DNA of 64,000 nucleotides from Knoellia sp. S7-12 (GTDB lineage Bacteria; Actinomycetota; Actinomycetes; Actinomycetales; Dermatophilaceae): NCBI RefSeq assembly GCF_040518285.1, contig NZ_CP155449.1, positions 1,612,001-1,676,000 on the forward strand, given 5' to 3'. Below the pieces are notes generated by a model. It made no database searches and was not told where the DNA came from. It worked only from the letters and a program-made list of their open reading frames with translations. Shown piece by piece: positions 13,979 through 46,530 of the stretch. How positions within the stretch are numbered: the first letter of the stretch is position 1; each line of letters begins with the position of its first letter. A program made the position numbers and the translations under genes.

Positions 13979-13983
13979 TCTAG
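12997..13983 (+). CDS. IS481-family transposase (DDE)
   Basis: The 328-residue transposase has an N-terminal helix-turn-helix (residues about 10-60, VPISEVAARFQCSWPTVKRW), a second winged-helix segment, and an rve/DDE core with HVDVKKF, VLSDNGSPY and the Glu in TNGKVERFHRTM. The ATG at 12997 follows AGGAGG closely. Its last sense codons run to the element end, and the TAG stop at 13981-13983 is supplied by the duplicated target, not by the element. The frame is intact, so it should be functional. Confidence 0.95.
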   Translation: MSHANAALTVRHRLKVAQLVVDQGVPISEVAARFQCSWPTVKRWADRYAAGEPMSDRSSRPHVMPAKTCVSTTKRIVSLRLRKRLGPVQLAAHVGVAPSTVHRVLTRCHLNRLAHVDRATGEPVRRYEHEHPGDMLHVDVKKFGNIPDGGGWRFVGRAQGMKNRTATPGKPKSKNHNPKMGHAFVHTVIDDHSRVAYAEIHDNETAATATAVLRRAVAWYVARGITIRRVLSDNGSPYVSHLWRDVCAELGIKHSRTRPRRPQTNGKVERFHRTMADGWGYARCYTSETERRQALPAWLHEYNHHRPHTACGNKPPNTRLINLSGQYI

Positions 13984-33101: not shown

Positions 33102-33307
33102 GGGTGCCGCACCCCCTTTCCCGGTTGGCCAATGGCGATTGACCCATCGTGACAAACGTTCCTGTCAGCGGTGGCAGGTTCGGGCAAAGAGCCCGCGACG
33201 TTCAGGTCCGACGGATACAGTTCGAGCCTGACTGTCCCACCGAGCGGAAGGTGTTGTTGCATGCTGACGCGGGGGGACGCACAAGGCTGCAGGCAGGGAG
33301 TGACGGC
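33102..33307. promoter_or_regulatory. Divergent promoter region, GT operon / BY-kinase
   Basis: These 206 bases separate the leftward glycosyltransferase operon from the rightward Wzz/kinase gene and should hold both promoters. TTGACC at about 33138 is a -35-like hexamer on the plus strand. No clear operator was identified. Confidence 0.4.
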
Positions 33308-34870
33308 GTGACGCTGCAGGACTACATCAAGGTGTTCAAACACCGCTGGATCGTGATGGTGATCTGCACTGCCGTGGCAGCAGGTGTGACGTGGTTGGTG
33401 ACGCCCGCGAGCGCCGACACCACCAGGAAGATCGGCTCCTACACAGCCACCGCGACGATCCTGGTGAGCTCCAGCGACCCTGAGAGCGGAGGGACCAATC
33501 TCGGACGCATCGCGCTGTACCTGACGACGGGCGAGGTGCCCAAGCGAGCCGCCGCAGTGGTGAAGTACGACGGCGATCCCGCACTGCTTGCCTCAGGCCT
33601 CACCGTGACACCGGACGGCGTTTCGCAAGCGTTGACGGTGGCGGCGGCGGCGTCCGATGGTGACCGGGCGGCCGCGGTGGCCAACGCCTTCGCCGACGAG
33701 ATCGTCAAGTTCACCGCCGAGGCGCAGCGTCCAGGGGTCGAGAACGCCAAGTTGTCCGTCCTCCAGCGGGCCACCCCCATCCCGAACGCTGCATCCGACA
33801 GCGGTTTCGTCGTGCCTCCCGGGCGAGGCCCACGCACGGCGATGGCCGCACTCCTTGGCCTGCTCGTCGGCATGGGTGCAGCTCTCGTCCTCGATCGCCT
33901 CGACTCGCGGCTGCGCACCCGCAGTGACATCCACTCCGCACTGGGGATGCCGATCATCGCCGAGGTGCCGCGACTCAAGCGCTCTCAGCGCAATCGCAAC
34001 ACCTTGGGCGTCCTTGAGGATCCACTCAGCCTCTATGCCGACGGCTACAGGGCCGCCCGCACGGCGCTCGTCCACACCGCCGGTCAGGTCATGCCCGGGG
34101 ACTACTCGCCGCGGCGCTCCGCTGTCGAGCCCCGTCGGTCCGCCAACTCTGGACGACTGATCCTCATCACCTCTGCCCACGCCTCCGAGGGCAAGACGAC
34201 CAGCGTGGCCAACCTCGCCGCGAGCTTCGCCGAGACCGGGCAGCAGGTGCTCGTGCTCGATGCCGACCTGAGGTCCCCGGACATCCACAACGTCTTCGAC
34301 GTGCCTCAGGGCGCCGGAATCTCGGACTACCTCACCGACCCGGGCGATGCGTCACTCGATGCGGTCGTGCGGCCGACAAGCGTGTCCGGCGTGCGGATCA
34401 TCACCGCCGGCACGAGCCTCGCGCACCCGGCGTCGTTGGCCAGCCGCATGGGTCACCTCCTCGAAGAGGCCCGCGAGATGGCCGACGTCGTCCTCATCGA
34501 CACCGCCCCTCTTCTCGAGGCCAGCGACGTCTTCGACATCCTCCCGATGGTCGACACCCTCCTCCTCGTGGTGCGCCACGGTCGTCTCACCGAGGTCTCG
34601 GGCAATCGGGTGGCCGAACTCGTTGGTCGTTTCCAGGTCCCCGTGAGCGGCGTCATCATCGTCGGCGCCAAGGCCAAGCTCGGCGACACCTACGGCTACG
34701 GCTACGGCTACGGCGACGCGCGCAAGACCAAGAAGAAGGTCAAGCGTGGCCGCAAGCTGGCCGAGCAGCGGCGCCCCGAGCCGCAGCAGGCTGCCGACTC
34801 GCCGCCGGAGAATCTCGACGACGAGGTCACCCGCGAGAGTCGCCGCACGCGGCGCGCCTCGTCGGCCTGA
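33308..34870 (+). CDS. Wzz-type chain-length regulator fused to BY-kinase
   Basis: A 520-residue fusion. The N-terminal Wzz domain has membrane helices at about 18-37 and 178-200. The cytoplasmic domain is a bacterial tyrosine kinase: Walker A ASEGKTT near 293, Walker A' VLVLDADLRSPDIH and Walker B VVLIDTAPLLE. The tail has three YG repeats ending YGYGYGYGDARK near 462-470, then a Lys/Arg-rich stretch; the tyrosines are probable autophosphorylation sites. These proteins set polysaccharide chain length through phosphorylation cycles, and the LMW phosphatase at 44467 is the likely partner. GTG 33308 follows AGGGAG. Confidence 0.9.
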   Translation: MTLQDYIKVFKHRWIVMVICTAVAAGVTWLVTPASADTTRKIGSYTATATILVSSSDPESGGTNLGRIALYLTTGEVPKRAAAVVKYDGDPALLASGLTVTPDGVSQALTVAAAASDGDRAAAVANAFADEIVKFTAEAQRPGVENAKLSVLQRATPIPNAASDSGFVVPPGRGPRTAMAALLGLLVGMGAALVLDRLDSRLRTRSDIHSALGMPIIAEVPRLKRSQRNRNTLGVLEDPLSLYADGYRAARTALVHTAGQVMPGDYSPRRSAVEPRRSANSGRLILITSAHASEGKTTSVANLAASFAETGQQVLVLDADLRSPDIHNVFDVPQGAGISDYLTDPGDASLDAVVRPTSVSGVRIITAGTSLAHPASLASRMGHLLEEAREMADVVLIDTAPLLEASDVFDILPMVDTLLLVVRHGRLTEVSGNRVAELVGRFQVPVSGVIIVGAKAKLGDTYGYGYGYGDARKTKKKVKRGRKLAEQRRPEPQQAADSPPENLDDEVTRESRRTRRASSA

Positions 34871-34877
34871 GCCCTTC

Positions 34878-36218
34878 ATGACGACCCTCCGGATGCGGCT
34901 GGCCACCGTATGCCTCGCTGTGCTCGCTGGGCTCGGCGTCGCGGCCGGGTTCAGGTTGGCGGTGAGCACGAACTCCTACAACTTCTGGGGTGCGGCGATC
35001 GTCGTGCCGATCGTCATCGCCGTCAACGTCGTCCTCATTCGACGGGTGAGCAGGGGCGGGGAGGAGGCGTGGCTTCCGGGACTGCTGGGAACTGCCTTCG
35101 CCCTCAAGATGGTCGGTGCGCTGGCTCGGTACTACATCGCGTACATCGTCTACGCCGGTGCTGCGGACGCCCAGCGCTACAACCTGTACGCAGCGTCCTA
35201 CTACAAGCTGTGGCGTGACGGGACGATCACCTTTGAGCTCGGCGGCAAGCAAGGCACGCAGTGGATGGAGGTCATCACCACAGCCCTGTACACAGTCATT
35301 GGTCCGTCACCTCTCGCGGCGTTCTTCGTCTTTGCCGCATTCGCCTTCTGGGGCCAGTACTTCCTGTTCAAGGCATTTCGAACGGCCCTCCCTGAGGGCA
35401 ATCAGAAGAGGTATGCCGCCCTCGTCCTCCTCCTTCCATCGCTTCTGTACTGGCCGTCAAGCATCGGCAAGGAGGCCTGGTTGATGTTCTTCGTCGGTGT
35501 GACCGCGCTGGGCGCTGCCTACCTTTTCGCTCACCGGCCCCGCGCGATCCCGCTCCTGCTCCTCGGTGCGGCAGGGACGACTCTCCTGCGACCGCACCTG
35601 GCTGTCCTGCTGTTCGCGGCGCTCTTCGTCGCTCAGCTCTTCAGGCCCACCGCGGCACGAAGCATTGGGATCCTCAGCAAGGTCGCAGGAGTGATCGTTC
35701 TGGGTGCTGCAGCCTTCGTGCTCACGTCCCAATCGGCGAGCTTCCTGGGTATCGATGATCTTTCGTACCAAGCGGTCTCTGACTCGGTCAATGCTGCGAG
35801 CGAGCAGGCGAGCGAGGGGAGCTCGGCGTTCGAGTCCAGTCCGATCCAGTCGCCGGCTGACATCCCCAGTGCCGTGATCACGGTCTTGTTCCGACCGTTC
35901 CCATTCGAGGCGCGCAACGCCCAGATGCTCTTGCAGGGCCTTGAAGGGCTGGTCTTGGTCGTGCTCGTGATCCGTTCGTGGCCACGCCTGCGTCACCTTC
36001 CCAGCCTCCTGAAGCGCAACCCCTATGTCACCTTCTGCATGATCTATACGGCGGCTTTCATCTGGGCCTTCTCGGGCTTCGGCAACTTCGGCATCCTGGC
36101 GCGGCAGAGGGTGCTGATGATCCCGTTCTTCGTCATCTTGTTGGCACTGCCCGAGGTCGGGCGATGGCGCGCACCAACCGACCGCACTGTATGGGAGTTG
36201 TCCCGTGCCCGCCGCTGA
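34878..36218 (+). CDS. Polytopic membrane protein, probable polysaccharide polymerase (Wzy-like)
   Basis: A 446-residue protein with about ten membrane helices and a long loop around residues 290-345 rich in Ser and acidic residues. Wzy polymerases are poorly conserved, so the call rests on topology and position: seven bases after the Wzz/BY-kinase gene, before a polysaccharide deacetylase. A transporter or oligosaccharide ligase remains possible. The next gene overlaps by 14 bases. Confidence 0.65.
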   Translation: MTTLRMRLATVCLAVLAGLGVAAGFRLAVSTNSYNFWGAAIVVPIVIAVNVVLIRRVSRGGEEAWLPGLLGTAFALKMVGALARYYIAYIVYAGAADAQRYNLYAASYYKLWRDGTITFELGGKQGTQWMEVITTALYTVIGPSPLAAFFVFAAFAFWGQYFLFKAFRTALPEGNQKRYAALVLLLPSLLYWPSSIGKEAWLMFFVGVTALGAAYLFAHRPRAIPLLLLGAAGTTLLRPHLAVLLFAALFVAQLFRPTAARSIGILSKVAGVIVLGAAAFVLTSQSASFLGIDDLSYQAVSDSVNAASEQASEGSSAFESSPIQSPADIPSAVITVLFRPFPFEARNAQMLLQGLEGLVLVVLVIRSWPRLRHLPSLLKRNPYVTFCMIYTAAFIWAFSGFGNFGILARQRVLMIPFFVILLALPEVGRWRAPTDRTVWELSRARR

Positions 36219-37017
36219 CCGTCAGGGCCCCCGTCGCCGCTTCAAGGATGCGCTGGCCCGGCTCGGAGGCGCGGCGCCTGCGAGCGGTGCCACTCTCCTC
36301 ATCTACCACCGCATCGGCGGGGGCACGCCCGACGAACTGGACCTGCCCACGAGTGACTTCGAGCGGCAGCTCGACGTCCTGGCGTCACACGACGTCGTGT
36401 CCCTCGACACCGCGCTCGATCGGCTCGACGCGGCTGACACCAGTCCGTCCGTGGTGCTGACCTTCGACGACGGCTTCGACGACGTCCACGCCAACGCCTG
36501 GCCGTCGCTGCGCGAACGAAAGCTGCCGTTCACGATCTACCTCGCGTCGGGCTACGTCGGTGGCTCGATGCTGTGGGAGGGCTCGACGGCCAAGGGCGCC
36601 ACCGGGCGGGGGATGAGCTGGGACCAGCTGGCCGAGTTCGTGGACTCAGGCTTGTGCACCATCGGCAACCACACTCACGGACATATCCGACCAGAGGTGT
36701 TGACCGTGTCGGAGCTAGACGCCTGCACCGAGGCCGTCGAACGACACCTCGGCGTGACTCCGCGCCACTTCACCTATCCGTGGGGGATCCCGGTGCCCGC
36801 CATGGAGGACGATCTGCGCGAGCGCTTCCGCAGCGCCTCCACCGGCGAGCTGGGTCGCAATCTGCCTGACAGCAACAGGATGCGGCTCAGCCGAGTGCCG
36901 GTGCGTCAGTCAGATCCCGAGGCTTTCTTCGCTGCCAAGCTCACCGGAGCGCTCGGGCCAGAACGCGCGTATGCCGCTGCCGTCCGTCTCGGGAAGGCCG
37001 CCGGTCTGCGGGGCTGA
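36205..37017 (+). CDS. Polysaccharide deacetylase (NodB/CE4 domain)
   Basis: The 270-residue enzyme removes N- or O-acetyl groups from polymeric sugars. It has the CE4 motif 1 VLTFDDGFDD with catalytic and metal Asp near 88-89, motif 2 GNHTHGH with metal His near 155 and 159, and motif 3-like YPWG. It lacks a signal peptide, so it may act on lipid-linked intermediates or be exported otherwise. Starts at GTG 36205, overlapping the membrane protein gene by 14 bases. Confidence 0.87.
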   Translation: MPAADRQGPRRRFKDALARLGGAAPASGATLLIYHRIGGGTPDELDLPTSDFERQLDVLASHDVVSLDTALDRLDAADTSPSVVLTFDDGFDDVHANAWPSLRERKLPFTIYLASGYVGGSMLWEGSTAKGATGRGMSWDQLAEFVDSGLCTIGNHTHGHIRPEVLTVSELDACTEAVERHLGVTPRHFTYPWGIPVPAMEDDLRERFRSASTGELGRNLPDSNRMRLSRVPVRQSDPEAFFAAKLTGALGPERAYAAAVRLGKAAGLRG

Positions 37018-37035
37018 CGTGTGGCGCTTCGTGGC

Positions 37036-38187
37036 TCAGGCGTGTGGCGAACGTGACACCAGCGCGGCATACACCTGCTCCTGGGCCGCGACGGCGCGGC
37101 GAATGTCGTAGTCCGCGGCGCGCGCGCGAGCAGCGGCACCCATGCGCTGCCGCAGGTCGTCATCACGTGCGACCGTGACGAGGGCGGCGGCGAGGGCGTG
37201 GGAGTCGCCAGGCGGGACGAGGAGTCCTTCGACGCCATCGGTGACTTGGTGGGGGAGGCCTCCCACTGCCGTGGCGACAACTGGGAGTCCACCTGCGAAG
37301 GCCTCCATCACCGCGACCGGCAGTCCCTCGTGGGCGGAGGCGAGGGTGAAGACGTCGGCCGCCGCCATGAGGTCGTGGACGTCGCGCCGGAAGCCGAGGA
37401 GCTGGAAGCGGTCACCGAGTCCGAGCGACGTGTGGAGTGCGGCCACCTCGTCCACGAGTGGGCCCTGACCCACAGCAGCGAACCGGAGCCGCGGTTCGAG
37501 GTCGAGGGCCAGGCGGGCGGCACGCAGAAGGTTCGGATAGTCCTTGTTGCTTCGCAGGTTGGCCACCGTGAGGGACAACACCTCGTCGGTGGCAACACCG
37601 AGCTCCGAGCGGAGGCGGCCGCGCGCGTCAGGGCCCGGGTTCACCGCCTCGGGGTCGATGCCGTGGATGAGGACGTCGTAGCCCTCACGCCGTGAGGTCC
37701 ACACCGTGTCCTTGACTTGGTCGGACACGGCCCAGTGATGGGCGTCGAGTGGCGCAGTGAAGCCGTTGAGCACCCGGGTCGGGGTGCGGTGACTCGTCCA
37801 CTCGTTGTGCTCGGTCGTCACGACAACCGGTCTCCGGGACCGGGGCAAGGTGCGCGAGACGAGTCGTGCGGCCGAGGCGAGGACGGGGGAGTGGGCATGG
37901 ACGATGTCGACGTCTGACATCGCGCGGCGCAGGTCCGCGATCCAGGGCGCACGCAGGGCAGGACCCGAGGTGTTGGCTCCAAGTCGCTGTGGGACAAGGC
38001 CGTTGGCCTCGAACTCCGGAACGAGGTGGGTCTTGTCCGGCCGCACATAGGCGACCCGGTAGTCGAAGCGACTTCGGTCGACCACTCCCGCGGCAAGGAG
38101 GAGGAGTTGCTCGGCGCCGCCCGGCCCCAGACCCTTGACGAGCCAGAGAACTCGGACCCGCTCAGTGGGTGGCCGTGGAGTCCCCAT
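37036..38187 (-). CDS. Glycosyltransferase family 4
   Basis: A 383-residue GT-B glycosyltransferase: VLWLVKGLGPGGAEQLLLL as the acceptor-side glycine loop, VTTEHNEW, LTVANLRSNKDYPNLLRA in the donor domain and the loop AHEGLPVAVMEAFAGGLPVV. ATG 38187 follows GGAGGGG at good spacing; the longer in-frame ORF is not needed. GC content is host-like, outside the acquired block. It is divergent from the GNAT gene at 38286. Confidence 0.88.
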   Translation of the reverse strand: MGTPRPPTERVRVLWLVKGLGPGGAEQLLLLAAGVVDRSRFDYRVAYVRPDKTHLVPEFEANGLVPQRLGANTSGPALRAPWIADLRRAMSDVDIVHAHSPVLASAARLVSRTLPRSRRPVVVTTEHNEWTSHRTPTRVLNGFTAPLDAHHWAVSDQVKDTVWTSRREGYDVLIHGIDPEAVNPGPDARGRLRSELGVATDEVLSLTVANLRSNKDYPNLLRAARLALDLEPRLRFAAVGQGPLVDEVAALHTSLGLGDRFQLLGFRRDVHDLMAAADVFTLASAHEGLPVAVMEAFAGGLPVVATAVGGLPHQVTDGVEGLLVPPGDSHALAAALVTVARDDDLRQRMGAAARARAADYDIRRAVAAQEQVYAALVSRSPHA

Positions 38188-38285
38188 CCTGTCCCCTCCA
38201 GATGCTCGCGTTGCTGAACGCCGACGGAGCATCCGGGCGCGCCCTAAACTCGCTCGAGAGTACCAACGACGACGGGGGCACACGG

Positions 38286-39266
38286 ATGAGCTCGGTGAAG
38301 CCGGAAGACCTTGTCATCAGGGCCGCCGAGCCGCAGGACGATGCGACGGCAATGCCGATGCTTCGAGCCTCGCTGGGCAAGGTCGACGACCCGCACTACG
38401 AGGCGTTCCTGAAGTGGAAGCACCGCGACAACCCGTTCGGGGTCTCGCCCGCGTGGGTGGCTCTGCACGAGGGTGTGGTCGTCGGCTATCGCACCTTCCT
38501 GCGCTGGGAGTTCCTGACCGAGGAAGGACGCGTCCTGCGGGCGGTGCGCGCAGTCGACACGGCAACCGACCCGGCATACAGAGGGGTGGGAATCTTTCGG
38601 ACTCTCACGTTGCAGGGGGTCAGCGAACTGACCCTCGCCGGTGACGGCATCGTCTTCAACACACCCAATGACCAGAGCCGACCCGGCTACCTCAAAATGG
38701 GCTGGACCCTGGCCCGCCAGCTCCCGGTCGGAGTGATGCCGCGGGGCCCGAGGTCGCTGCAGTCCATGCTGACCTCGCGCGTCCCAGCCACGCTGTGGTC
38801 GGAGGCCACCGACGTCGGGCTCGACGCCGCGGCTGCTCTGGCCGATCGTGGGGTCGCGCAGCAGCTCATTGAACACGCACCGACTGCAGGCGTCCGGACG
38901 AACCGCACCCCCGAGTACCTCGCTTGGCGCACGGCGTTCGGACCTCTGCACTATCGCCTGCTCCTCGCCAAGGAAGCCGACCCCAGCCGTGGCGGTGTGT
39001 TCTTCCGACTCCGTCGTCGGGGCGAGGCCGTGGAAGCCGCGATCATCGAACAGCTCGTGCCCGACCGCCGCACCGGAGCATCCCTCGTGCGCCGCGTTCT
39101 CAGGGAGACCGGAGCCGACTACGCGATAGGGCTGCGGACCGGGCCGTCAGCGGGCCTCCTGCCCTTGCCCCGGCAGGGGCCGCTGCTCACGACCCGGCCA
39201 CTTGCTGCCTCACCGCCGTCACCCGGCAAATGGGCGCTCACGCTCGGCGACGTCGAGCTGTTCTGA
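38286..39266 (+). CDS. GNAT-family acyltransferase
   Basis: A 326-residue N-acyltransferase. The acetyl-CoA loop is TDPAYRGVGIFRTLTL in the first third, with VFNTPNDQSRPGYLKMGW after it. The long C-terminal half resembles proteins in polysaccharide loci that acylate amino sugars. Its 3' end overlaps the convergent ligase-like gene by 48 bases. The substrate is unknown; an amino sugar made via the WbpM-like dehydratase is a reasonable guess. Confidence 0.75.
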   Translation: MSSVKPEDLVIRAAEPQDDATAMPMLRASLGKVDDPHYEAFLKWKHRDNPFGVSPAWVALHEGVVVGYRTFLRWEFLTEEGRVLRAVRAVDTATDPAYRGVGIFRTLTLQGVSELTLAGDGIVFNTPNDQSRPGYLKMGWTLARQLPVGVMPRGPRSLQSMLTSRVPATLWSEATDVGLDAAAALADRGVAQQLIEHAPTAGVRTNRTPEYLAWRTAFGPLHYRLLLAKEADPSRGGVFFRLRRRGEAVEAAIIEQLVPDRRTGASLVRRVLRETGADYAIGLRTGPSAGLLPLPRQGPLLTTRPLAASPPSPGKWALTLGDVELF

Positions 39267-40271
39267 GTCGAGCTGTTCGGGGTTGACCGATCCTGAGGTG
39301 CGGGTCGCGGCGGCCCATCCAAGGACAAGTCCGGCGGTGAGGACGACGGGGGCGAACTCCAGCAGGTGGTCGGCATAGGAGTGCACGACCAGAGCGGTCC
39401 AGGCGGCGACGGCAACGATGGCCTGGGGTGCCTTGCCCCGGGCCGCCCAGAGCATGCCAGTGAGCACGATCAGACCAAAGAGGGCGACTCCGATCCAGCC
39501 GGTCTCGGCACCGATCTGAAGCACCGACGAATGTGCGGTCGACGTGTCGGGGTCGATCGACAACGCAGTGGCGTCACGGAACGACCCCGGCCCGGCACCC
39601 GTGAGGGGTCGTCGCTGCCACAGCGCCACCGCGTCGTGCCAGAGCCGCTCCCGGACGGTGTCAAAGATGCCCCCCGCCCAGGACGGGAAGGTCGGACCCT
39701 CCGCGAGGCGCCGGATGACCGCGGCGCCGGTGCCTGCCACAAGAACTCCGAGGACGACGGCCCACCAGCGGTGAGTGGGTCGCCGCCACATGACGCAACC
39801 GATGGCGGCCACCACGGGCACGGCGACTGCGAGTCCGGCGGCGGAACGGTTGAGCGCCACCGCAACCACGCCGAGGATCAGGGCGGCGACGAGGGTCCGA
39901 CGCCGCCCGGGCGGCGTGGCGAGCAGCGCCAGCCCGCAGAGCCCCACGAGCTGCACCGCCAGGGCCGCGTTGGCATTGGCATAGCCCAGAGGCTCCTTTC
40001 CCGGCTCGCTGGTGAGCAGCACTCCAAGGATGAGGAGCCCACACACAACGGCGAGGGCGACATGCAGACGGGAGTCACCGGCATACCGGACCAGTGCCTG
40101 TCCGCCCGCGACTCCGAGCACGAGAACGATCGGTGCCACCAAATAGGGGGACGTCAGCGAAAAACCCTGGTCCAGGCGGATGCCCACCGCGGCTGACCAC
40201 GACACCCACACGGCCAGCAGCGCGAGCCCACACAGGCCGGGCCACCCGACTCGGTCGAGGTGGCGTCGCAC
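39219..40271 (-). CDS. O-antigen ligase/polymerase-like membrane protein
   Basis: A 350-residue protein with about ten membrane helices and the Wzy_C/WaaL hallmark loop RERLWHDAVALWQRRPLTGA followed by GPGSF, then HSSVLQIGAETGWIGV. Members join or polymerise undecaprenyl-linked glycans outside the membrane. With the protein at 34878 the locus has two candidates for polymerase and ligase. Transcribed leftward just after the epimerase gene (14-base gap). Confidence 0.82.
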   Translation of the reverse strand: MRRHLDRVGWPGLCGLALLAVWVSWSAAVGIRLDQGFSLTSPYLVAPIVLVLGVAGGQALVRYAGDSRLHVALAVVCGLLILGVLLTSEPGKEPLGYANANAALAVQLVGLCGLALLATPPGRRRTLVAALILGVVAVALNRSAAGLAVAVPVVAAIGCVMWRRPTHRWWAVVLGVLVAGTGAAVIRRLAEGPTFPSWAGGIFDTVRERLWHDAVALWQRRPLTGAGPGSFRDATALSIDPDTSTAHSSVLQIGAETGWIGVALFGLIVLTGMLWAARGKAPQAIVAVAAWTALVVHSYADHLLEFAPVVLTAGLVLGWAAATRTSGSVNPEQLDSEQLDVAERERPFAG

Positions 40272-40285
40272 GTCGGCCGCCGAAC

Positions 40286-41230
40286 TCAGGCGCGGTAGTC
40301 GGGCAGCGTGCGGAACCAGTCAACGGTCGCCTGCAGGCCTTCGCGCAGTGGGACCGGGGCGACATCAGGGAAGTGCCCCCGCAGACGCGAGTTGTCGGCC
40401 TGGGAGTCGCGGACGTCTCCGGCCCGGGTCTCGACGTGTTCCACGGCAGGGCGCTCGCCGAGGATGTCGGCGAGTTCGTCGACCACGACGTTGAGCGACG
40501 TCCGGCTGCCGAACGCGAGGTTGATGGCTTCGAGGTCGCTGACCTTGCGGACGACCGCGTCGGCGATCACTCGCGTCACGGTGCCGACAAAGGTGAAGTC
40601 GCGGGTCTGCTCACCGTCGCCGTGGACGGTGAGGGGAACCCCGCGCAACGCCGCGTCGATGAACGCAGGCAGGACTGCGGCGTACGCATGGCCGGCGGCC
40701 TGAAGCGGTCCGTAGACATTGAAGAAGCGGAAGGCGAGGGTCGGCATGCCGTAGGTGTGGCCGAACGACAACGTGTAGGCCTCGGTCGCCTGCTTGCTCA
40801 CGGCATACGGAGAGATCGGTGCGGTGCGCATGCTCTCGCGCTTGGGGAGCTCACGGTTGGCGCCGTAGACCGAGGACGATGACGCCGAGATGACGTGCAG
40901 GTCGCCCGCCCGGCGAGCCGCCTGCAGCACTTCGAGGGTGCCGGTGGCATTCGCGTGATGCGAGGCGAGCGGGTCGATGACGGAGCGCGGGACCGAGGGG
41001 AGCGCGCCGAGGTGCACGATGGCGCTGGCACCAGCGCAGGCCTCGTCAAGGGCAGCAGGATCGAGGATCGTCCCCTCGAGCAAGGTGATGCCGGTGCCCT
41101 CGAGGTTGGCTCGGGAACCGGTCGACAGGTTGTCGATCGCGACGACCTGGTCGATCTCGGGCCGGCCGAGCAACTCGCGCCCGAGGTTGGATCCGATGAA
41201 CCCGGCCCCGCCGGTCACCACGACCTTCAC
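40286..41230 (-). CDS. NAD-dependent nucleotide-sugar epimerase
   Basis: A 314-residue extended SDR similar to UDP-glucose or UDP-GlcNAc 4-epimerases: KVVVTGGAGFIGSNLG, VHLGALPSVPRSV, ASSSSVYGANRELP with catalytic Ser, YAVSKQATE with Tyr/Lys, and FRFFNVYGPLQ. GTG 41230 was chosen because it begins the Rossmann strand and follows GGGGGA. It is distinct from the glucuronate-type epimerase at 21132 and is in host-like DNA. Confidence 0.88.
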   Translation of the reverse strand: MKVVVTGGAGFIGSNLGRELLGRPEIDQVVAIDNLSTGSRANLEGTGITLLEGTILDPAALDEACAGASAIVHLGALPSVPRSVIDPLASHHANATGTLEVLQAARRAGDLHVISASSSSVYGANRELPKRESMRTAPISPYAVSKQATEAYTLSFGHTYGMPTLAFRFFNVYGPLQAAGHAYAAVLPAFIDAALRGVPLTVHGDGEQTRDFTFVGTVTRVIADAVVRKVSDLEAINLAFGSRTSLNVVVDELADILGERPAVEHVETRAGDVRDSQADNSRLRGHFPDVAPVPLREGLQATVDWFRTLPDYRA

Positions 41231-41320
41231 GTGTATCCCCCATGTTGAGGCGGTGGCGCACGCAGTTGCACCCGTTTTCCGCACGCTACCACCGGGCGGA
41301 CAGGGGTATCCGTGACTGGG

Positions 41321-41332
41321 TAGGGTCGGGCT
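41321..41332 (+). promoter_or_regulatory. Leaderless promoter of the nucleotidyltransferase/PqqD module
   Basis: TAGGGT at 41321-41326 is a -10 box six bases before GTG 41333, with no ribosome-binding site between. The module's first two genes overlap, so they share this promoter. Confidence 0.6.
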
Positions 41333-42208
41333 GTGCATGCCGCGACGATGCCTTGGTCAGTGGGGATTCGCTTCTCCCACGCGGCTCTTCAGGCGCTTGC
41401 TGATGACCACGACGTGGACCTCCTCCACATCAAGGGACCTGCCGTCGACGACACCCTCGGCGGGGGCACGAGGCAGAGCATCGATGCGGACGTCCTGGTC
41501 CGACCCACGCACGTCGACCGCCTCATCGCGGCGATGCACAGTCACGGGTGGACGACTCAGTTCCTCTTCGAGGATGGCTCGGCCTTCGAGCACGCGTCGA
41601 CCCTGGTCCACCCGTTCCTCGCACCTGTCGACGTGCACCGCCGGTTCCCCGGCATGGACGGTGACCCGGCCGCGGCCTTCGACCGGCTCTGGAATGATCG
41701 GCACGTCACAGACCTTGCCGGTATGCCGTGTGCGGTCCCTTCGGTGACCGCGCAGCGTCTCGTCCTCATCGTGCATGCCGCCCGAGGGGGCAGGCTCCCC
41801 CACGCTGACATCGAGCGCAGCTGGACCAGCAGCACCCCCGACGAACGCGAGGCGGTGATCGCCCTGGCCGCCAACATCGGTGCCGGCGTCGCACTGGCCG
41901 CCGGCACGGGCCGGCTGGACGAGTTCGTCGGTCAGCCCGGCCATGAGCTGTGGCGGGTGCTGTCCACGGGGGAGCGGTCACGTGCCAAGATCTGGGCGGC
42001 CAGGGTCAGGTCGGCGCCCACGAAGCGCGCAGCTGTGAGGACCGCGATCCGCCTCATCGTGCCCAACCGCCATCGTATGCAAACCAGCCTCGGACGCGCC
42101 CCCACGACGCGTGAGGTGGCCACCGCCTATGTCGCCAGTGCCCGCAGTGGGGGCCGGGAACTGGCCGGCTTCCTCCGCTCCGTGGCGTCCGAGCGGCGCA
42201 GGCGATGA
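41333..42208 (+). CDS. Nucleotidyltransferase family protein (NTP_transf_5-like)
   Basis: A 291-residue protein of the uncharacterised nucleotidyltransferase family seen near lasso-peptide and polysaccharide genes. The core is HIKGPAVDD, then GGGTRQSIDADVLVRP, with the metal-binding DxD at Asp51/Asp53, then VDVHRRFPG. The C-terminal half is helical. It should transfer a nucleotide or nucleotide-like group to a small molecule or protein. It overlaps the PqqD-like gene by 4 bases (ATGA). Confidence 0.82.
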   Translation: MHAATMPWSVGIRFSHAALQALADDHDVDLLHIKGPAVDDTLGGGTRQSIDADVLVRPTHVDRLIAAMHSHGWTTQFLFEDGSAFEHASTLVHPFLAPVDVHRRFPGMDGDPAAAFDRLWNDRHVTDLAGMPCAVPSVTAQRLVLIVHAARGGRLPHADIERSWTSSTPDEREAVIALAANIGAGVALAAGTGRLDEFVGQPGHELWRVLSTGERSRAKIWAARVRSAPTKRAAVRTAIRLIVPNRHRMQTSLGRAPTTREVATAYVASARSGGRELAGFLRSVASERRRR

Positions 42209-42492
42209 CCAGCTACAAGGTGCCCGCACGCCTGGCCTTCGTCATCCCGGACGATTCCGAGGCCCCGCAGGTCTTCCTCATGGAGCTACCCGACGGACTG
42301 CCCGTCGTGCTGCACGACACCTCGGCGATCATCTGGGTGCTTGCAGCTGACGGCGAGTCCGATGTGGGGTCGGCAGTGCTCGACGTCGTCAGTGCTGATC
42401 GCGCCGAGGTCGAGGCTGAGGTCGAGGCTGAGGTCGAGATCTTCCTCGCCGACCTCGTGGGCAGAGGGCTGCTCGAACGCGTCGGTGACTAG
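42205..42492 (+). CDS. PqqD-like peptide-binding protein (copy 1)
   Basis: A 95-residue winged-helix protein of the PqqD/RRE type, which in RiPP pathways grips a leader peptide for a partner enzyme. It shows ELPDGLPVVLHDTSAIIWVL (beta strands, then helix) and IFLADLVGRGLLERV at the end. A run of EVEA repeats comes from nearly three 12-base copies at 42406-42438. It is translationally coupled to the nucleotidyltransferase and precedes the Tat-exported protein. Confidence 0.75.
   Translation: MTSYKVPARLAFVIPDDSEAPQVFLMELPDGLPVVLHDTSAIIWVLAADGESDVGSAVLDVVSADRAEVEAEVEAEVEIFLADLVGRGLLERVGD
42406..42438 (+). repeat. 12-base tandem repeat inside PqqD-like gene
   Basis: The unit GAGGTCGAGGCT occurs about 2.75 times and encodes the acidic EVEA repeats of the PqqD-like protein. 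Copy number could change in frame by slippage. Confidence 0.85.
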
Positions 42493-42629
42493 GCGATCCG
42501 TAGCCCCTTGGTGCTGGTCAAAGGCCGAAAATACGGTCCCTTGGAGTCCTCGATTCCTTCTCATGCCCTCTTCGCCCGCTGATACCTTGGGCACCGAATC
42601 CGAATAAATCTATGCAAGGGGAGAGTCCA

Positions 42630-43307
42630 ATGACTGAGCAGCGCGAGGACCGGCGTATTTCGCGTCGCACCATCGCCAAGGGAGCGGCTTGGGCGATTCC
42701 CGCAGTGCCCCTCGTGGTGGCGACGCCGGCGTATGCATCGTCTGGTGGCGGACCCACCGGCGTCTTCATCGATGCCTGCAAGCAGCCTGGCGCCAGTTGC
42801 AGAAACGACTTCGGCTTCATCAAGGGCTACACCTTCACGTTCAGCATCACGAACCCGACAGCTGAAACCATCTACATCTACCCGACCATCAACAATGTCG
42901 ACAACCCGGACAGCGCCAACCCGGCCGATCGTCTCAACCCCCTCTTTTCCTTGGTCTCTAACCCGGCGAAGAACTTCTCCTACGAGACGGCGCGCAAGTT
43001 CGTGGGTGGCGCCATCGGCGTGCCGCTGCAGCCGGCCGAGCCGATCCTGCCGGGCCAGACCATCCAGATCATCATCAACGCGGGGGTGAACGGCAACAGT
43101 TCCAACATCTCCGGAGCAGGTTCGGTCTACATCGCTTATGGTCACACCCCGGTGATCGGTGCCGACCGCGACCACCCCTACGTCCCCGTCCCCCCGGCGA
43201 ACCCAGCGGGTGAAGGATGGCTCAGGATCCCGATCGCCTTCGCCTCGACCCCGCCGTGTGGTACCGATTGCGCGCCTGGCGGCGACACCAGCGAGACAGG
43301 GCCCTGA
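42630..43307 (+). CDS. Tat-exported hypothetical protein
   Basis: The 225-residue product begins with a twin-arginine signal (SRRTIAKGA with Arg12-Arg13, hydrophobic stretch, cleavage after ATPAYA near residue 36). The mature part has an Asn/Thr-rich beta-type core (FSITNPTAETIYIYPTINNV) and four cysteines in two pairs, CKQPGASC and CGTDC. Tat export means it folds, or binds a cofactor, before secretion. The family is unknown. The start follows AAGGGGAGAG. Lying between two PqqD-like genes and beside a kinase-like gene, it is the natural candidate substrate of the module. Confidence 0.8.
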   Translation: MTEQREDRRISRRTIAKGAAWAIPAVPLVVATPAYASSGGGPTGVFIDACKQPGASCRNDFGFIKGYTFTFSITNPTAETIYIYPTINNVDNPDSANPADRLNPLFSLVSNPAKNFSYETARKFVGGAIGVPLQPAEPILPGQTIQIIINAGVNGNSSNISGAGSVYIAYGHTPVIGADRDHPYVPVPPANPAGEGWLRIPIAFASTPPCGTDCAPGGDTSETGP

Positions 43308-43333
43308 TCTCTCGCGATGCTCTAGCCGGCGGC

Positions 43334-43615
43334 TCATCCAGCCGTGGGACGCAGGATGCCGTGGTGGATCAATTCCGCCACGGCATCCTGCGTCGCGTTG
43401 ATCGTTGAGCGCCCCTCGGGTGCGCCGAACTCCTCTTCGAGTGGGGACACCAGCGCGTAGACATCGATCGGCTCCCGGGAGAGCGCATAGATCGCGGCGC
43501 TGAGCTCATTCAGCAGCACCACGGTGCCGTTGTCGAGGAGCAGGGCCGTCCGTCCGTGGCGCGTCAGTGTGTCAGTTGCCTCATTTCGCTGAACGATCAT
43601 AACGGACCCCGGCAT
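43334..43615 (-). CDS. PqqD-like peptide-binding protein (copy 2)
   Basis: A 93-residue PqqD-type protein: TALLLDNGTVVLLNELSAAI, YALSREPIDVYALVSPL and QDAVAELIHHGILRP. It is diverged from the copy at 42205. It overlaps the end of the kinase-like gene by 19 bases, so the two are co-translated, a pairing also known from lasso-peptide kinase genes. Its 3' end contains a perfect 17-base inverted repeat facing the convergent Tat-protein gene. Confidence 0.75.
   Translation of the reverse strand: MPGSVMIVQRNEATDTLTRHGRTALLLDNGTVVLLNELSAAIYALSREPIDVYALVSPLEEEFGAPEGRSTINATQDAVAELIHHGILRPTAG
43348..43394 (-). terminator. Intragenic 17-base-arm hairpin between convergent genes
   Basis: Arms 43348-43364 and 43378-43394 pair perfectly around a 13-base loop; each arm contains GCAGGATGCCGTGG or its complement. 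It lies in the last codons of the PqqD-like gene and 40 bases beyond the Tat-protein stop. It could end transcription of the rightward gene. There is no T run. Confidence 0.5.
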
Positions 43616-44361
43616 AGATCTTTCAGGACCTCTTGCGCCTCAGCTGCCTCGCTGTATCGCACACGGATCACAGGTCCTGTCCTGTCGATGAGCCCCGCAA
43701 TGCGGTGCAACGGTCGCGTGAGCCGCGGCAACGACGAGGACTGCTCGGCCAGCCCGACGACGGCGTCCAGGATCAACAGCTCCTCAAGCTCGACCCCATC
43801 GACGAGAGGCTGTCGATCCAGAAACACCACGCGTCCCACATGTGCTCGTTCGGGCGTGGCCAACAGGCCGAGATCGTCCGGGGAGACCTCGTCCTTGATG
43901 CTTACATCCGACGTGCGACGGATCGAGAGCGGTTTCGGGTACGGACAGATGACACCGGACTCATCAATACCCACAGTCTCATCCGTCAGGTAGCCCAGCC
44001 GCTGTCCGAGCAGTGCGCTCAGAGTCGTTTTGCCTGTGCCCCCCTTGGCAACGAAGACCACGCTTCGACCGGTCCTGGGGTCACTCACCGCGCCGGCATG
44101 GAACATGAGGAGGCCGCCAGCCCGCGCGAAGATGAGGGCGCGGGTCACCGCCTGCGTGGTGGTCATGAGTCGATACGGCAACATCGCGACGTCCTCGAGC
44201 TGCACCTCCAGCGGCTCGGCCCGCACGGGGGAGATGGCCGGCGCAACCCGGCAACGCGACCAGGCAGTGCGCATTGCCGCCGCGAGCTCGGCGGCGGCTG
44301 AACCCGTGCATCGCACCTCGACGACGGCACCGAGTCCGTGCAGCCGGAGCACTTCGCTCAC
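43597..44361 (-). CDS. HPr-kinase-like P-loop protein
   Basis: A 254-residue protein with a P-loop VAKGGTGKTT near residues 104-113, a His in LMFHAGAVS just before it, and LTDETVGIDESG as the Walker B-like region. The layout matches HprK-related kinases found beside PqqD-like proteins. Such kinases phosphorylate a serine or hydroxyl on a peptide in some lasso-peptide pathways. GTG 44361 was chosen over TTG 44385 because AGGAGG lies at proper spacing. It heads a two-gene leftward operon with the second PqqD-like gene. Confidence 0.75.
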   Translation of the reverse strand: MSEVLRLHGLGAVVEVRCTGSAAAELAAAMRTAWSRCRVAPAISPVRAEPLEVQLEDVAMLPYRLMTTTQAVTRALIFARAGGLLMFHAGAVSDPRTGRSVVFVAKGGTGKTTLSALLGQRLGYLTDETVGIDESGVICPYPKPLSIRRTSDVSIKDEVSPDDLGLLATPERAHVGRVVFLDRQPLVDGVELEELLILDAVVGLAEQSSSLPRLTRPLHRIAGLIDRTGPVIRVRYSEAAEAQEVLKDLCRGPL

Positions 44362-44454
44362 GGGCCATGCCTCCTGTCCGTGCAACGCCTGGGTGCGCGC
44401 TCGTCTGACCGCACCCTATCCAGCCGTTTGCCAAGGCGTGGGGGTCTGCGCGAT

Positions 44455-44466
44455 TAGCCTGAGCGA
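44455..44466 (+). promoter_or_regulatory. Leaderless promoter of the tyrosine phosphatase gene
   Basis: TAGCCT at 44455-44460 lies six bases before GTG 44467; no ribosome-binding site separates them. Confidence 0.5.
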
Positions 44467-45048
44467 GTGAGAGTCAGAGCCAAGCGAGCCGACGAGCCGT
44501 TGCGCGTGCTCTTCGTCTGCACGGCCAACATCTCTCGTTCTCCCTACGCCGAGCGACGGGCTGCTCATTTCTTCACCGGCGCCACCGAGCCCAATGTGCG
44601 CTTCGCGAGCGCCGGGGTGCCAGGTTTTCCCGGTCGCGGCATGGACCCGCAGATGGCCGCCCAGCTCTCGAGGCGGGGTATCGAGCCCAATGGCCACGTG
44701 AGTCGCTCGGTCTCGGTCGGTATCCTCGCCGACGCAGACGTCGTCGTCACCGTTGAACTCGCGCATCGGCTGCGCATCGCCGAGATCTGGCCGGAGCACG
44801 CCGCCAAGGTCTTCGGCCTGCACCAGCTCGCCGACGCCTTCGAGCGGATGCCCCCTTCGGCCGGAGGGCTCGAGGCCTTGGACGCAGCTCTCACCGTCAC
44901 TCGCCCCGACAGCATGGCGTGGGACGTCGTGGACCCCTACAAACGGGGCGCCGCCGCCGCCAAGGCCTGTTCCGATGAGATCGACGGGGCGCTCGCCGTC
45001 ATCGTGCCGGGACTGGCCGGCACCTCAGTTCGCTCCGCTCCACGCTGA
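44467..45048 (+). CDS. Low-molecular-weight protein tyrosine phosphatase
   Basis: A 193-residue phosphatase with the P-loop CTANISRS (Cys18, Arg24) and the general-acid loop VVDPYKRG. It is longer than the usual 150-160 residues of Wzb-type enzymes, mainly through an insertion before the DPYKRG loop. It closes the polysaccharide locus and is the probable partner that dephosphorylates the BY-kinase at 33308. It could also act on products of the neighbouring kinase-like gene. Confidence 0.9.
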   Translation: MRVRAKRADEPLRVLFVCTANISRSPYAERRAAHFFTGATEPNVRFASAGVPGFPGRGMDPQMAAQLSRRGIEPNGHVSRSVSVGILADADVVVTVELAHRLRIAEIWPEHAAKVFGLHQLADAFERMPPSAGGLEALDAALTVTRPDSMAWDVVDPYKRGAAAAKACSDEIDGALAVIVPGLAGTSVRSAPR

Positions 45049-45075
45049 CCATCGGTGGCCAGCGACCCCGACGCA

Positions 45076-46530
45076 CTATTCGATGTCGAGGGCGGCCTCG
45101 ACCGTCGTCTCCCAGGCAACGTCACTGGTGCGCTCGTCGATGATCGACAGGAGTCTGTCGCCGTCCTTGAGGTGCTTGGCCCACAGCGGCCCGCTCGCCC
45201 CGTCAGCGAAGTGGAGGAAGCGGAAACCTTGCGCCCGAGCCACGCCGACGACCTCGGGCCACGAGCCTCCGATCGTCGTCCCATCGGCAGTCACGGTGAT
45301 GCCCTCGGGGCTCGCGTGCACCGCGAGATCGCGCGGCGGCACGACTGCGGTCAGTCGACGCTTGAAGAGTTGCCCGGGGACCGGTTCACGGCTGGGGAAC
45401 TCCCAGTCCGTGCGGTCCGCGATGCCTCGCAGCGGGTTCTTCGGCAGCTCGGGTACACCGATGACCGCGCTCTCCTGTGCAGCCCGAGCCCAGTCGCGCA
45501 CCTGGTCGGCCGTCACGGCGTTGTAGGCATCGCGCAGCTCATGGCGATCGCGGACGCGCCCCTCGCGCAGGAATCGGATGGCTTCGACATCGAGGACGGC
45601 CATCGTCGCCCGCGGGTCTGAAAGGAATGCCGTAAAGCCCGCCTTCTCGTGAGCGAGCTCCTCCTCACCAGGCCCGTGCGTCGCGAGGTCCGTCAGCGCG
45701 GACCACACGACATGAACGATCTCGTCACTGTCCTCCTTCGCGCCGTCGGTCGCGATGCTCACCAGGCCGAGGTCGGAGGTGAGCCCGCTACCGTCGTCGC
45801 TGACCTCGTAGGTCAACCCGAGGTTGTGGCGAGCCTGGTCCTCGATGCGTTGGACAAGAATGTGAGTCATGGTGAGTGCTTCGTAGAGGCGCGGCTGAAG
45901 GTAGGACAAGGCCACGACAGGGATCTGTCCGGCGATCAGGGCAGGCGTCTCGAACGGCGAGGGGCGCCACGCGGTGTCCGCTGCGCGCGTCCCTTCAAGC
46001 AGGTCGAGGTGCAGCCCGTCCGGCACGGGACCTGAAAGCACCAGCACCGCGTTGGCTGCCACGCAGTGGGTGCGCGCAAACTCGACCACATGCTCTGCGT
46101 TCGGTGCGCGCCCCTCCCGCTGGAGCTCGCCGAGCAGGCCTGGTCCGACAGGTCCCGATCGCACGGCCATGGCCCAGCCAAGGTGCGGTTCGCACGAGCT
46201 GCCGTCCTCGGCCGCAAGGACCTTAAGTTCGCGATCGAGGCGATCGAGGGGCAAAGAGGTGAGCGCTCGGCATACGCCGTGGAGGAAGGCGACCACCTCG
46301 TCACGCGGGCCGGTCGCATAGAAGCGCATGGCGTCGACGTCGACGGAGGCGTTCTTGTCGAGGTGGTCGCGGGGGAGTGTCGACATGACGAGGTGCTCGA
46401 CAAGGTGCGCCACGCCCCGGCTGCGGAAGGTCTCATGACGATCACCAGCGAAGAAGATCAGGGTGGCGCTGAACGGTTCTGGTCCCTGCTCCCAGAATGT
46501 GGGAACGCCGTTAACCTCGGTCTGCTGCAT
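45076..46530 (-). CDS. M16-family zinc metallopeptidase
   Basis: A 484-residue inverzincin with the HxxEH motif as AHLVEHLVMST near residues 41-48 and a downstream Glu in RELKVLAAEDGS as third ligand, followed by the inactive-like C-terminal half. It is shorter and more divergent than the PepR peptidase that in many actinobacteria sits between pnp and dapB. The upstream TACAGT, eight bases before the ATG, may be a -10. The substrate is unknown. Confidence 0.8.
   Translation of the reverse strand: MQQTEVNGVPTFWEQGPEPFSATLIFFAGDRHETFRSRGVAHLVEHLVMSTLPRDHLDKNASVDVDAMRFYATGPRDEVVAFLHGVCRALTSLPLDRLDRELKVLAAEDGSSCEPHLGWAMAVRSGPVGPGLLGELQREGRAPNAEHVVEFARTHCVAANAVLVLSGPVPDGLHLDLLEGTRAADTAWRPSPFETPALIAGQIPVVALSYLQPRLYEALTMTHILVQRIEDQARHNLGLTYEVSDDGSGLTSDLGLVSIATDGAKEDSDEIVHVVWSALTDLATHGPGEEELAHEKAGFTAFLSDPRATMAVLDVEAIRFLREGRVRDRHELRDAYNAVTADQVRDWARAAQESAVIGVPELPKNPLRGIADRTDWEFPSREPVPGQLFKRRLTAVVPPRDLAVHASPEGITVTADGTTIGGSWPEVVGVARAQGFRFLHFADGASGPLWAKHLKDGDRLLSIIDERTSDVAWETTVEAALDIE

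What the first reader, a model, noticed from the sequence alone, without database searches (positions are those of the whole stretch)
41333..44361. Two PqqD-like proteins, a kinase-like ATPase, a nucleotidyltransferase and a Tat-exported protein form one module
Seen: a nucleotidyltransferase (41333) overlaps a PqqD-like gene (42205); then a Tat-exported 225-residue protein (42630); then, convergent, a second PqqD-like gene overlapping an HPr-kinase-like gene (43334-44361). Known: PqqD domains bind leader peptides in RiPP pathways, and HprK-like kinases and NTP_transf_5 proteins tailor some lasso peptides. Here there is no cyclase, no protease and no small precursor, and the module sits in a polysaccharide locus. 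Inference: two PqqD proteins may each guide one transferase (nucleotidyl and phosphoryl) to a shared target, perhaps the folded Tat cargo or a polysaccharide carrier.
Basis: partly seen in the sequence, partly recalled or inferred. Interest (0 to 1): 0.78.

Follow-up and report, generated by a model that had tools for sequence, protein, structure and literature searches.

The report
Tat signals that double as leaders
In many actinobacteria a kinase and a nucleotidyltransferase-like enzyme, each with its own small peptide-binding partner, sit in sugar-coat gene clusters beside exported proteins whose export tag carries a docking motif known from peptide natural products, which suggests that folded surface proteins are chemically tagged before they leave the cell.

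Summary
The five genes are real and recur together. Both PqqD proteins resemble the RREs (leader-binding domains) of lasso and LPP pathways in sequence; PqqD2 also in predicted fold. Of 132 distinct signals collected, 129 have WxxP. With the motif masked from the search model, 56 of 57 RR-signals within 5 kb of an HprK still show it; 1 of 41 control RR-signals does. Ser stands 17 residues after the Trp in 119 of 125. Outside the window's family, all 16 sampled genomes with both enzymes carry such signals, against 4 of 141 others. A capsule-type tyrosine-kinase gene lies near 60 of 80 named HprK loci and in 0 of 40 control stretches. Closest known: LPP/paeninodin pathways of Bacillota, with the same kinase, RRE, nucleotidyltransferase and capsule setting, but small peptides and no Tat signal. 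Best reading: Tat-exported surface proteins are docked through their signal peptides, phosphorylated and probably further modified before export. Against it: 36 of 80 loci have no such cargo nearby, and binding, chemistry and role are unmeasured.

The parts
41333..42208 (+). NT: PF14907 nucleotidyltransferase-like enzyme; D51, D53 and D100 invariant in 26 of 26 aligned relatives
42205..42492 (+). PqqD1: RRE-type partner of NT; profile matches TbiB1, LppB, PbaB1 and TfuB1
42630..43307 (+). Cargo: 225-residue protein with Tat-type signal; mature part predicted as beta-sandwich from residue 42, no clear PDB match
42663..42668 (+). twin arginine R12-R13 of the cargo signal
42690..42707 (+). proposed RRE-docking motif W21-A-I-P24-A-V26 in the Tat signal
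   Evidence: motif from PMC13381572
42741..42743 (+). S38, 17 residues after W21: proposed modification site (inference)
43334..43615 (-). PqqD2: RRE-type partner of HprK
43597..44361 (-). HprK-like kinase; H88, K111, D127 and E128 invariant in 27 of 27 aligned relatives
44467..45048 (+). low-molecular-weight tyrosine phosphatase (neighbour; a homologue lies in 27 of 80 named loci, 0 of 40 control stretches)
33149..34870 (+). polysaccharide tyrosine-autokinase-like protein of the surrounding locus (a homologue covering both halves lies in 60 of 80 named loci, 0 of 40 control stretches)

Best explanation
This is an RRE-guided tailoring system for Tat-exported surface proteins. The cargo is made with a Tat signal peptide that also acts as a RiPP-style leader: its W-x-x-P-x-V motif docks in the groove of the PqqD/RRE proteins. 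PqqD2 presents the cargo to the HprK-like kinase, which phosphorylates it, most likely on the Ser 17 residues after the Trp, beside the signal-peptidase site. PqqD1 presents it to the nucleotidyltransferase-like enzyme, which probably adds a sugar or nucleotide to that phosphate. The folded, finished cargo then goes to Tat, the signal is cut, and the tagged protein reaches the surface, where it works with the polysaccharide made by the surrounding genes. Shown by computation: recurrence, pairing, RRE relationship, presence and conservation of the motif. Inferred: binding, phosphorylation, target residue, second modification, order of steps, link to polysaccharide. My estimates: cargos are the substrates 0.75; docking through WxxP 0.7; kinase acts on cargo 0.65; Ser at W+17 is the site 0.4; NT adds sugar or nucleotide to it 0.4; the modification joins protein to polysaccharide 0.25.
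For: 80 of 80 named HprK loci have a PqqD within 2 kb, 49 an NT within 12 kb, 44 a cargo-type Tat signal within 5 kb. PqqD1 and PqqD2 profiles match leader-binding RREs of lasso and LPP pathways; PqqD2 model best matches TbiB1 with leader. 129 of 132 signals have WxxP; W+5 is V/I/L/M/F/A in 125 of 125, Ser at W+17 in 119 of 125. Masked-profile test: 56 of 57 with W..P, 54 with the Ser. Motif-blind detector: 52 of 89 near HprK, 1 of 41 in control DNA, 2 of 34 farther than 5 kb in the same loci. Outside the own family 16 of 16 genomes with both enzymes have the signal, 4 of 141 others. Beside HprK in 6 of 20 further loci from other lineages there is an RR-signal with WxxPx[VI]; in a seventh, picked for a weak signal hit, the Trp is Tyr, as the RRE motif allows. 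In LPP the RRE-bound precursor is phosphorylated by an HprK-like kinase on one Ser 18 residues after the motif Tyr. Catalytic-type residues are invariant in kinase and NT.
Against: 36 of 80 named HprK loci have no cargo-type signal within 12 kb, and the own genome has a second HprK-PqqD ORF with none within the 15 kb taken. 11 of 67 family genomes with HprK or NT lack the signal at E 1e-6; three genomes of the order (G420, G478, G503) have the signal without HprK or NT hits. Three signal hits lack the Trp. Ser at W+17 fails in 5 of the 7 distant signals. The signals match the generic Tat model weakly: 2 of 31 at E up to 1. LppN was inactive in its test host, and the review leaves open whether PsmN is the glycosyltransferase itself. 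Loci share ancestry, so counts are not independent. No binding or chemistry was measured.
Confidence: 0.62

Rival explanations
1. WxxP and the Ser belong only to Tat targeting and cleavage of one much-copied signal-peptide family; PqqD, HprK and NT act on another, unseen peptide.
For: The signal family is multi-copy and often far from the module (up to 16 hits in one genome); 36 of 80 HprK loci have no such cargo nearby; three genomes have the signal without HprK or NT hits.
Against: Genomes without HprK and NT almost always lack the signal: outside the own family 4 of 141 genomes without both enzymes have it. Other RR-signals lack WxxP (1 of 41 control). Distant loci keep [W/Y]xxPx[VI] while the RR-to-W spacing changes. 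No small precursor lies in the module's gaps.
Confidence: 0.2
2. The set is a degenerate or unrecognised lasso or LPP cluster that makes a small peptide.
For: Same kinase, RRE and nucleotidyltransferase families; RRE profiles match TbiB1, LppB and PbaB1; LPP clusters also lie in capsule loci.
Against: No cyclase, B2 protease or SipW-type peptidase among the 20 window proteins scanned and no small precursor in the gaps; the recurring partner is a Tat protein. The rest of the genome was not scanned for these.
Confidence: 0.06
3. HprK and NT act on the polysaccharide, its lipid carrier or a capsule regulator, and the Tat protein is a passive neighbour.
For: Polysaccharide tyrosine-kinase homologue in 60 of 80 loci against 0 of 40 control stretches; tyrosine phosphatase next door.
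Against: It leaves the RRE-type partners and the WxxP motif in the signals unexplained; HprK-like kinases of related pathways phosphorylate ribosomal peptides.
Confidence: 0.12

Closest known systems
LPP (linear polyphosphorylated peptide) RiPPs of Bacillota, PMC13381572 (sections 5 in part, 9 and 12 read)
   Same: Discrete RRE, HprK-like kinase, NTP transferase, [Y/W]xxPx[V/L] docking motif, a Ser about as far from the motif (18 there, 17 here), capsule loci
   Different: Small precursor of 35-200 residues without a Tat signal, SipW-type leader peptidase and MsbA-like transporter in the core set, Bacillota; here a folded Tat cargo, two RREs per set, no such peptidase found beside the module
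Paeninodin-like and pseudomycoidin lasso peptides (PadeK, PsmK, PsmN; review PMC9266682, passages)
   Same: Kinase of the HprK kind plus annotated nucleotidyltransferase that is needed for hexoses on the phosphate; WxxP leaders bound by B1 RREs
   Different: Lasso cyclase and B2 protease; modification on the C-terminal Ser of a small peptide
NCBIfam HPr-rel-A system (TIGR04352 kinase, TIGR04353 PqqD)
   Same: HprK-like kinase with a PqqD partner; 25 of 27 aligned kinases match TIGR04352 at E 0.001
   Different: Window proteins score far below both curated cut-offs (34.3 of 200; 14.9 of 35); the system's function is not described in the library
Bufferins and other MNIO RiPPs with Sec signal peptides (PMC12452194, passages)
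   Same: Precursors with a signal peptide that is probably part of the recognition sequence; authors also ask how early export is avoided
   Different: Sec, not Tat; other enzymes (MNIO), metal-related function
Tat maturation chaperones (REMPs; PMC3316669, start of abstract in search listing)
   Same: A cytoplasmic protein binds the Tat signal of a pre-protein during maturation
   Different: Serve cofactor insertion; different fold (recalled)

Membership tests
RRE (RiPP recognition element) | PqqD-like winged-helix fold related to leader-binding RREs | tested here: met
RRE (RiPP recognition element) | Binds a leader peptide | not testable with these tools
   No complex prediction or assay available
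LPP | Discrete RRE, HprK-like kinase and NTP transferase together | tested here: met
LPP | SipW-like (SpI) leader peptidase and MsbA-like transporter in the core cluster | tested here: not met
   None among the scanned neighbours at 36205-46530; an ABC transporter lies 15 kb away at 24318-26075; rest of genome not tested
LPP | Small precursor with conserved YxxPxVLxHQxIxFETxxS N-terminus, no Tat signal | tested here: not met
   Cargo has 225 residues, an RR-signal and WAIPAV; no small precursor in the gaps
Lasso peptide cluster | Macrolactam cyclase (protein C) and B2 protease | tested here: not met
   Absent among 20 scanned window proteins; rest of genome not tested
HPr-rel-A system | Curated scores of TIGR04352 and TIGR04353 | tested here: not met
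   34.3 bits of 200 and 14.9 of 35
Tat substrate | RR motif, hydrophobic stretch, AxA site | tested here: inconclusive
   RR and AxA present and conserved; TIGR01409 matches only 2 of 31 signal fragments at E up to 1, formate_TAT 13 of 31
Tat substrate | Export by the Tat translocon | not testable with these tools
   Needs experiment
[quoted passage not shown]
   H88, K111, D127 and E128 in 27 of 27; whether E128 stands for the last Asp was not shown; motif from the review

The most novel reading that the evidence does not exclude
A widespread actinobacterial protein-tagging system in which the Tat signal peptide is a dual-use leader: it recruits an RRE-bound kinase and an RRE-bound nucleotidyl- or glycosyltransferase to a Ser at the future N-terminus of folded proteins, and this phospho-linked tag tethers many different surface proteins to the capsule or exopolysaccharide made by the same locus. 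RiPP logic would then apply to folded, exported proteins.
Probability: 0.25. Interest if true: 0.93.

Novelty: new variant of a known kind. Interest (0 to 1): 0.8.

Why it matters
If right, leader-guided tailoring is not limited to small peptides: a Tat signal would be both export tag and docking handle for enzymes that decorate folded exported proteins. It would explain why HprK-like kinases, PqqD proteins and PF14907 enzymes sit in polysaccharide loci, give a function to a large set of unnamed Tat proteins, and offer a portable tag for modifying secreted proteins. It also makes the unknown role of the LPP and paeninodin pathways, which are also found in capsule loci, testable in a second phylum.

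Tried and rejected
Chance neighbourhood: rejected. Missed small precursor: only an antisense ORF inside the cargo carried the motif. Anti-phage system: no PADLOC match for the five proteins at E 0.001.

Circularity of the WxxP count: the seed signals (A1) came from a pattern that demanded [WYF]xxP, so their invariance proves nothing. I repeated the search with the motif columns masked and with a motif-blind detector and control DNA. In one search the single exception of 57 (L205) is a wrong RR picked by my script; its signal has W..P. With everything from the Trp on masked, 35 of 36 had W..P; the exception is L243. In one search two near signals (L200, L201) were counted as lacking W..P for the same reason; 52 becomes 54 of 89 with them. 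The detector also picks up membrane proteins in every set.

Loss of the twin arginine with WxxP kept: two cargos (L065, L070) first looked RR-less; one search showed RR 12 residues before the Trp, so I dropped that argument.

Ser at W+17 as a universal rule: dropped after (2 of 7 distant signals have it).

Phylum sample of 296 genomes: the signal profile is strong in 2 genomes, both of the window's family; HprK has hits in 51, mostly weak; NT in 7. One weak signal hit, G363, lay 0.7 kb from HprK and led to L320.

Papers: the searches in the held open library showed no listing of a Tat signal as RRE ligand; lists were capped and most subscription papers are not held. PMC13381572: outline, section 5 parts 1 and 2 of 4, sections 9 and 12, and passages. 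PMC9266682 and PMC12452194: passages. The original pseudomycoidin paper was not held. PMC3316669: start of abstract in the listing only.
Full report
WHAT IS THERE. The window lies in a 4.16 Mb genome, Knoellia-like by its closest named relatives (inference). The five ORFs are as described. Around them is a polysaccharide locus: Polysacc_synt_2 and UDP-sugar dehydrogenase genes, glycosyltransferases, a tyrosine-autokinase-like protein at 33149-34870 (best NCBIfam matches are polysaccharide tyrosine autokinases, below their cut-offs; Wzz half weak, E 0.027), a Wzy_C protein at 39219-40271, a polysaccharide deacetylase, an NAD-epimerase and an LMW tyrosine phosphatase.

IT IS A RECURRING SET. In 119 genomes of the family, HprK is found in 65, NT in 56, PqqD in 67 and the cargo query in 49. 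Cargo hits lie within 5 kb of HprK or NT in 23 of 92 cases, in 19 genomes, against 0.64 expected. A scan of named genomes with the HprK alignment found 232 relatives and kept the best 80. In these 80 a PqqD lies within 2 kb in 80 (in the same ORF as HprK in 36), NT within 12 kb in 49, and a cargo-type Tat signal within 5 kb in 44; 36 have no such signal within 12 kb. Positive loci include Knoellia, Phycicoccus, Humibacillus, Terrabacter, Pedococcus, Propioniciclava, Arthrobacter, Pseudarthrobacter, Demequina, Marmoricola and Frigoribacterium (titles). Several are close relatives (Arthrobacter, Demequina), so these are not 80 independent events. Each enzyme tends to have its own PqqD: 79 of 80 HprK within 200 bp or fused, 36 of 49 NT within 300 bp; in most of the other 13 the nearest PqqD is 1.6-1.8 kb off. 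A homologue of the window's tyrosine-autokinase-like protein, covering both halves, lies in 60 of the 80 loci and in 0 of 40 control stretches of 20 kb.

THE PqqD PROTEINS ARE RRE-LIKE. PqqD1's profile finds in the PDB the lasso RRE TbiB1 (1.1e-11), LppB of the LPP pathway (3.9e-6), PbaB1 (2.5e-5) and TfuB1 (1.7e-4); WD-40 proteins also appear, through repeated weak matches none of which passes alone. PqqD2's profile finds PbaB1 (3.5e-4), PqqD (6.5e-4) and TbiB1 (0.005). The AlphaFold2 model of PqqD2 (pLDDT 94.3) has the TbiB1-leader complex 5v1v as best Foldseek match (E 9.1e-4, TM 0.71/0.74), followed largely by RRE-bearing RiPP enzymes.

THE DOCKING MOTIF. Popov et al. 2026 (PMC13381572) show that lasso and LPP RREs bind [Y/W]xxPx[L/V/I/F/A] in leaders. 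The cargo's Tat signal reads SRRTIAKGAAWAIPAVPLVVATPAYASSGG: W-A-I-P-A-V. Among 132 distinct ORFs hit by the signal profile at E 1e-3 in the loci held then, 129 have WxxP and 3 do not. In 125 distinct signals with WxxP, the residue at W+5 is V 59, I 58, L 4, M 2, F 1, A 1; the RR starts 8 or 9 residues before W in 123 and 12 in 2; Ser stands at W+17 in 119. Mature parts differ widely.

CONTROLS. The seeds were biased, so I masked columns W, W+3, W+5, W+12 and W+17 and rebuilt the profile. It found 57 RR-signals within 5 kb of HprK in the named loci; 56 have W..P and 54 of these Ser at W+17; 47 of the 57 come from loci not shared with the seeds, 46 of them with W..P. A detector that knows nothing of the motif found 89 RR-like signals within 5 kb of HprK, 52 with W..P (54 with two mis-picked) and 50 with Ser at W+17; in 800 kb of control DNA 41 RR-like signals, 1 with W..P and none with the Ser; farther than 5 kb in the same loci 34, 2 with W..P, 1 with the Ser.

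PHYLETIC LINK. At E up to 1e-6 the signal profile hits 57 family genomes; 56 have HprK or NT, the exception being an 83% complete genome; 11 of 67 genomes with HprK or NT lack it. In 169 genomes of the order, 22 of 23 with both enzymes have it; 3 of 26 signal genomes have neither enzyme. Leaving out the 12 genomes of the window's family, 157 remain: 16 with both enzymes, all 16 with the signal; 4 of the other 141 have it. In 20 kb around the signal of G420, G478 and G503 no HprK, NT or PqqD was found; G491, around its NT hit, has weak HprK and PqqD matches. Fisher P values (1e-15 to 1e-21) ignore relatedness.

DISTANT LINEAGES. I took 20 further stretches around HprK hits of the phylum and order samples. 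Six (L325, L327, L330, L335, L341, L344) have, next to HprK, an RR-signal with WxxPx[VI], two of them with the classical RRDFLKR, and with RR 12-16 residues before the Trp. The other 14 showed none. A seventh locus, L320, was chosen because it had a weak signal hit; its cargo lies between PqqD and HprK and reads SRRALVGTAYAAPTILVLRPVAAFAQSG: Tyr in place of Trp, as the RRE motif allows, and Ser at +17. Ser at +17 is also in L344 but not in the other five. The cargos of L320 and L344 carry LATTG and LAYTG, then a hydrophobic stretch and charged tail, like sortase-anchored wall proteins (motif recalled, not searched).

MECHANISM. In LPP, LppK puts phosphates on one Ser, S3 of the core, 18 residues after the motif Tyr; S3T is not phosphorylated; a SipW-like peptidase cuts the leader; LppN showed no activity in the test host. 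In pseudomycoidin, PsmK phosphorylates and the annotated nucleotidyltransferase PsmN is needed for hexoses on that phosphate, though it may act indirectly (review). Here the same three enzyme kinds meet a Tat signal with the docking motif and a near-invariant Ser 17 residues on, just after the A-x-A site. Kinase residues H88, K111, D127 and E128 are kept in 27 of 27 and NT residues D51, D53 and D100 in 26 of 26, which fits active enzymes. Tat exports folded proteins, which leaves time for modification in the cytoplasm, and an RRE on the signal could hold the cargo back, as Tat maturation chaperones do (listing). These links are inference.

LIMITS. No complex was modelled and nothing was measured. 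In the 36 loci without a nearby cargo the cargos may lie elsewhere (up to 16 signal hits per genome) or the enzymes may have other targets. The own genome has a second HprK-PqqD ORF without NT or signal in the 15 kb taken. The link to polysaccharide rests on gene neighbourhood alone.

VERDICT. The inference that both PqqD proteins guide transferases to the Tat protein gains strong comparative support, with the Tat signal as docking site. It works like LPP tailoring but is not an LPP or lasso cluster by the features tested. I found no listing of a Tat signal as RRE ligand in the searches named under Tried and rejected.

Noticed in passing
G000:C1 about 162414-163667 (L077 7415-8668, - strand): Second HprK-like kinase in the same genome, in one ORF with a PqqD domain, without NT or cargo-type signal in the 15 kb taken.
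   Followed up: partly
L068 7738-9917 (genome G103): NT-PqqD beside a PqqD2 and a short HprK piece of 152 residues that looks broken, while an intact HprK-PqqD lies elsewhere in that genome.
   Followed up: no
L267, L276, L279 (Demequina): Four to six cargo-type Tat signals lie within 12 kb of one HprK, as if cargo genes had multiplied beside the module.
   Followed up: no
window 42630-43307 and relatives: 39 of 132 cargos share K-x-P-G near the start of the mature part, 33 of them K-x-P-G-x-S, in proteins otherwise very different.
   Followed up: no
L320 7253-7843 and L344 7459-7845: These cargos carry LATTG and LAYTG followed by a hydrophobic stretch and charged tail, suggesting sortase anchoring to the wall.
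   Followed up: no
L140 1255-1992, L194 2-1033 (genome G562): Signals of this type in which the Trp is Leu or Ile while the Pro and the next hydrophobic residue are kept, in a genome with HprK and NT.
   Followed up: no
window 5081-6292 (-) and 12904-13983 (+): Two transposase genes, IS110-type and rve-type, flank the start of the window's polysaccharide region.
   Followed up: partly
window 33149-34870: Best NCBIfam match is the XrtA-associated tyrosine autokinase model (below cut-off), a reminder of the PEP-CTERM polysaccharide loci.
   Followed up: no
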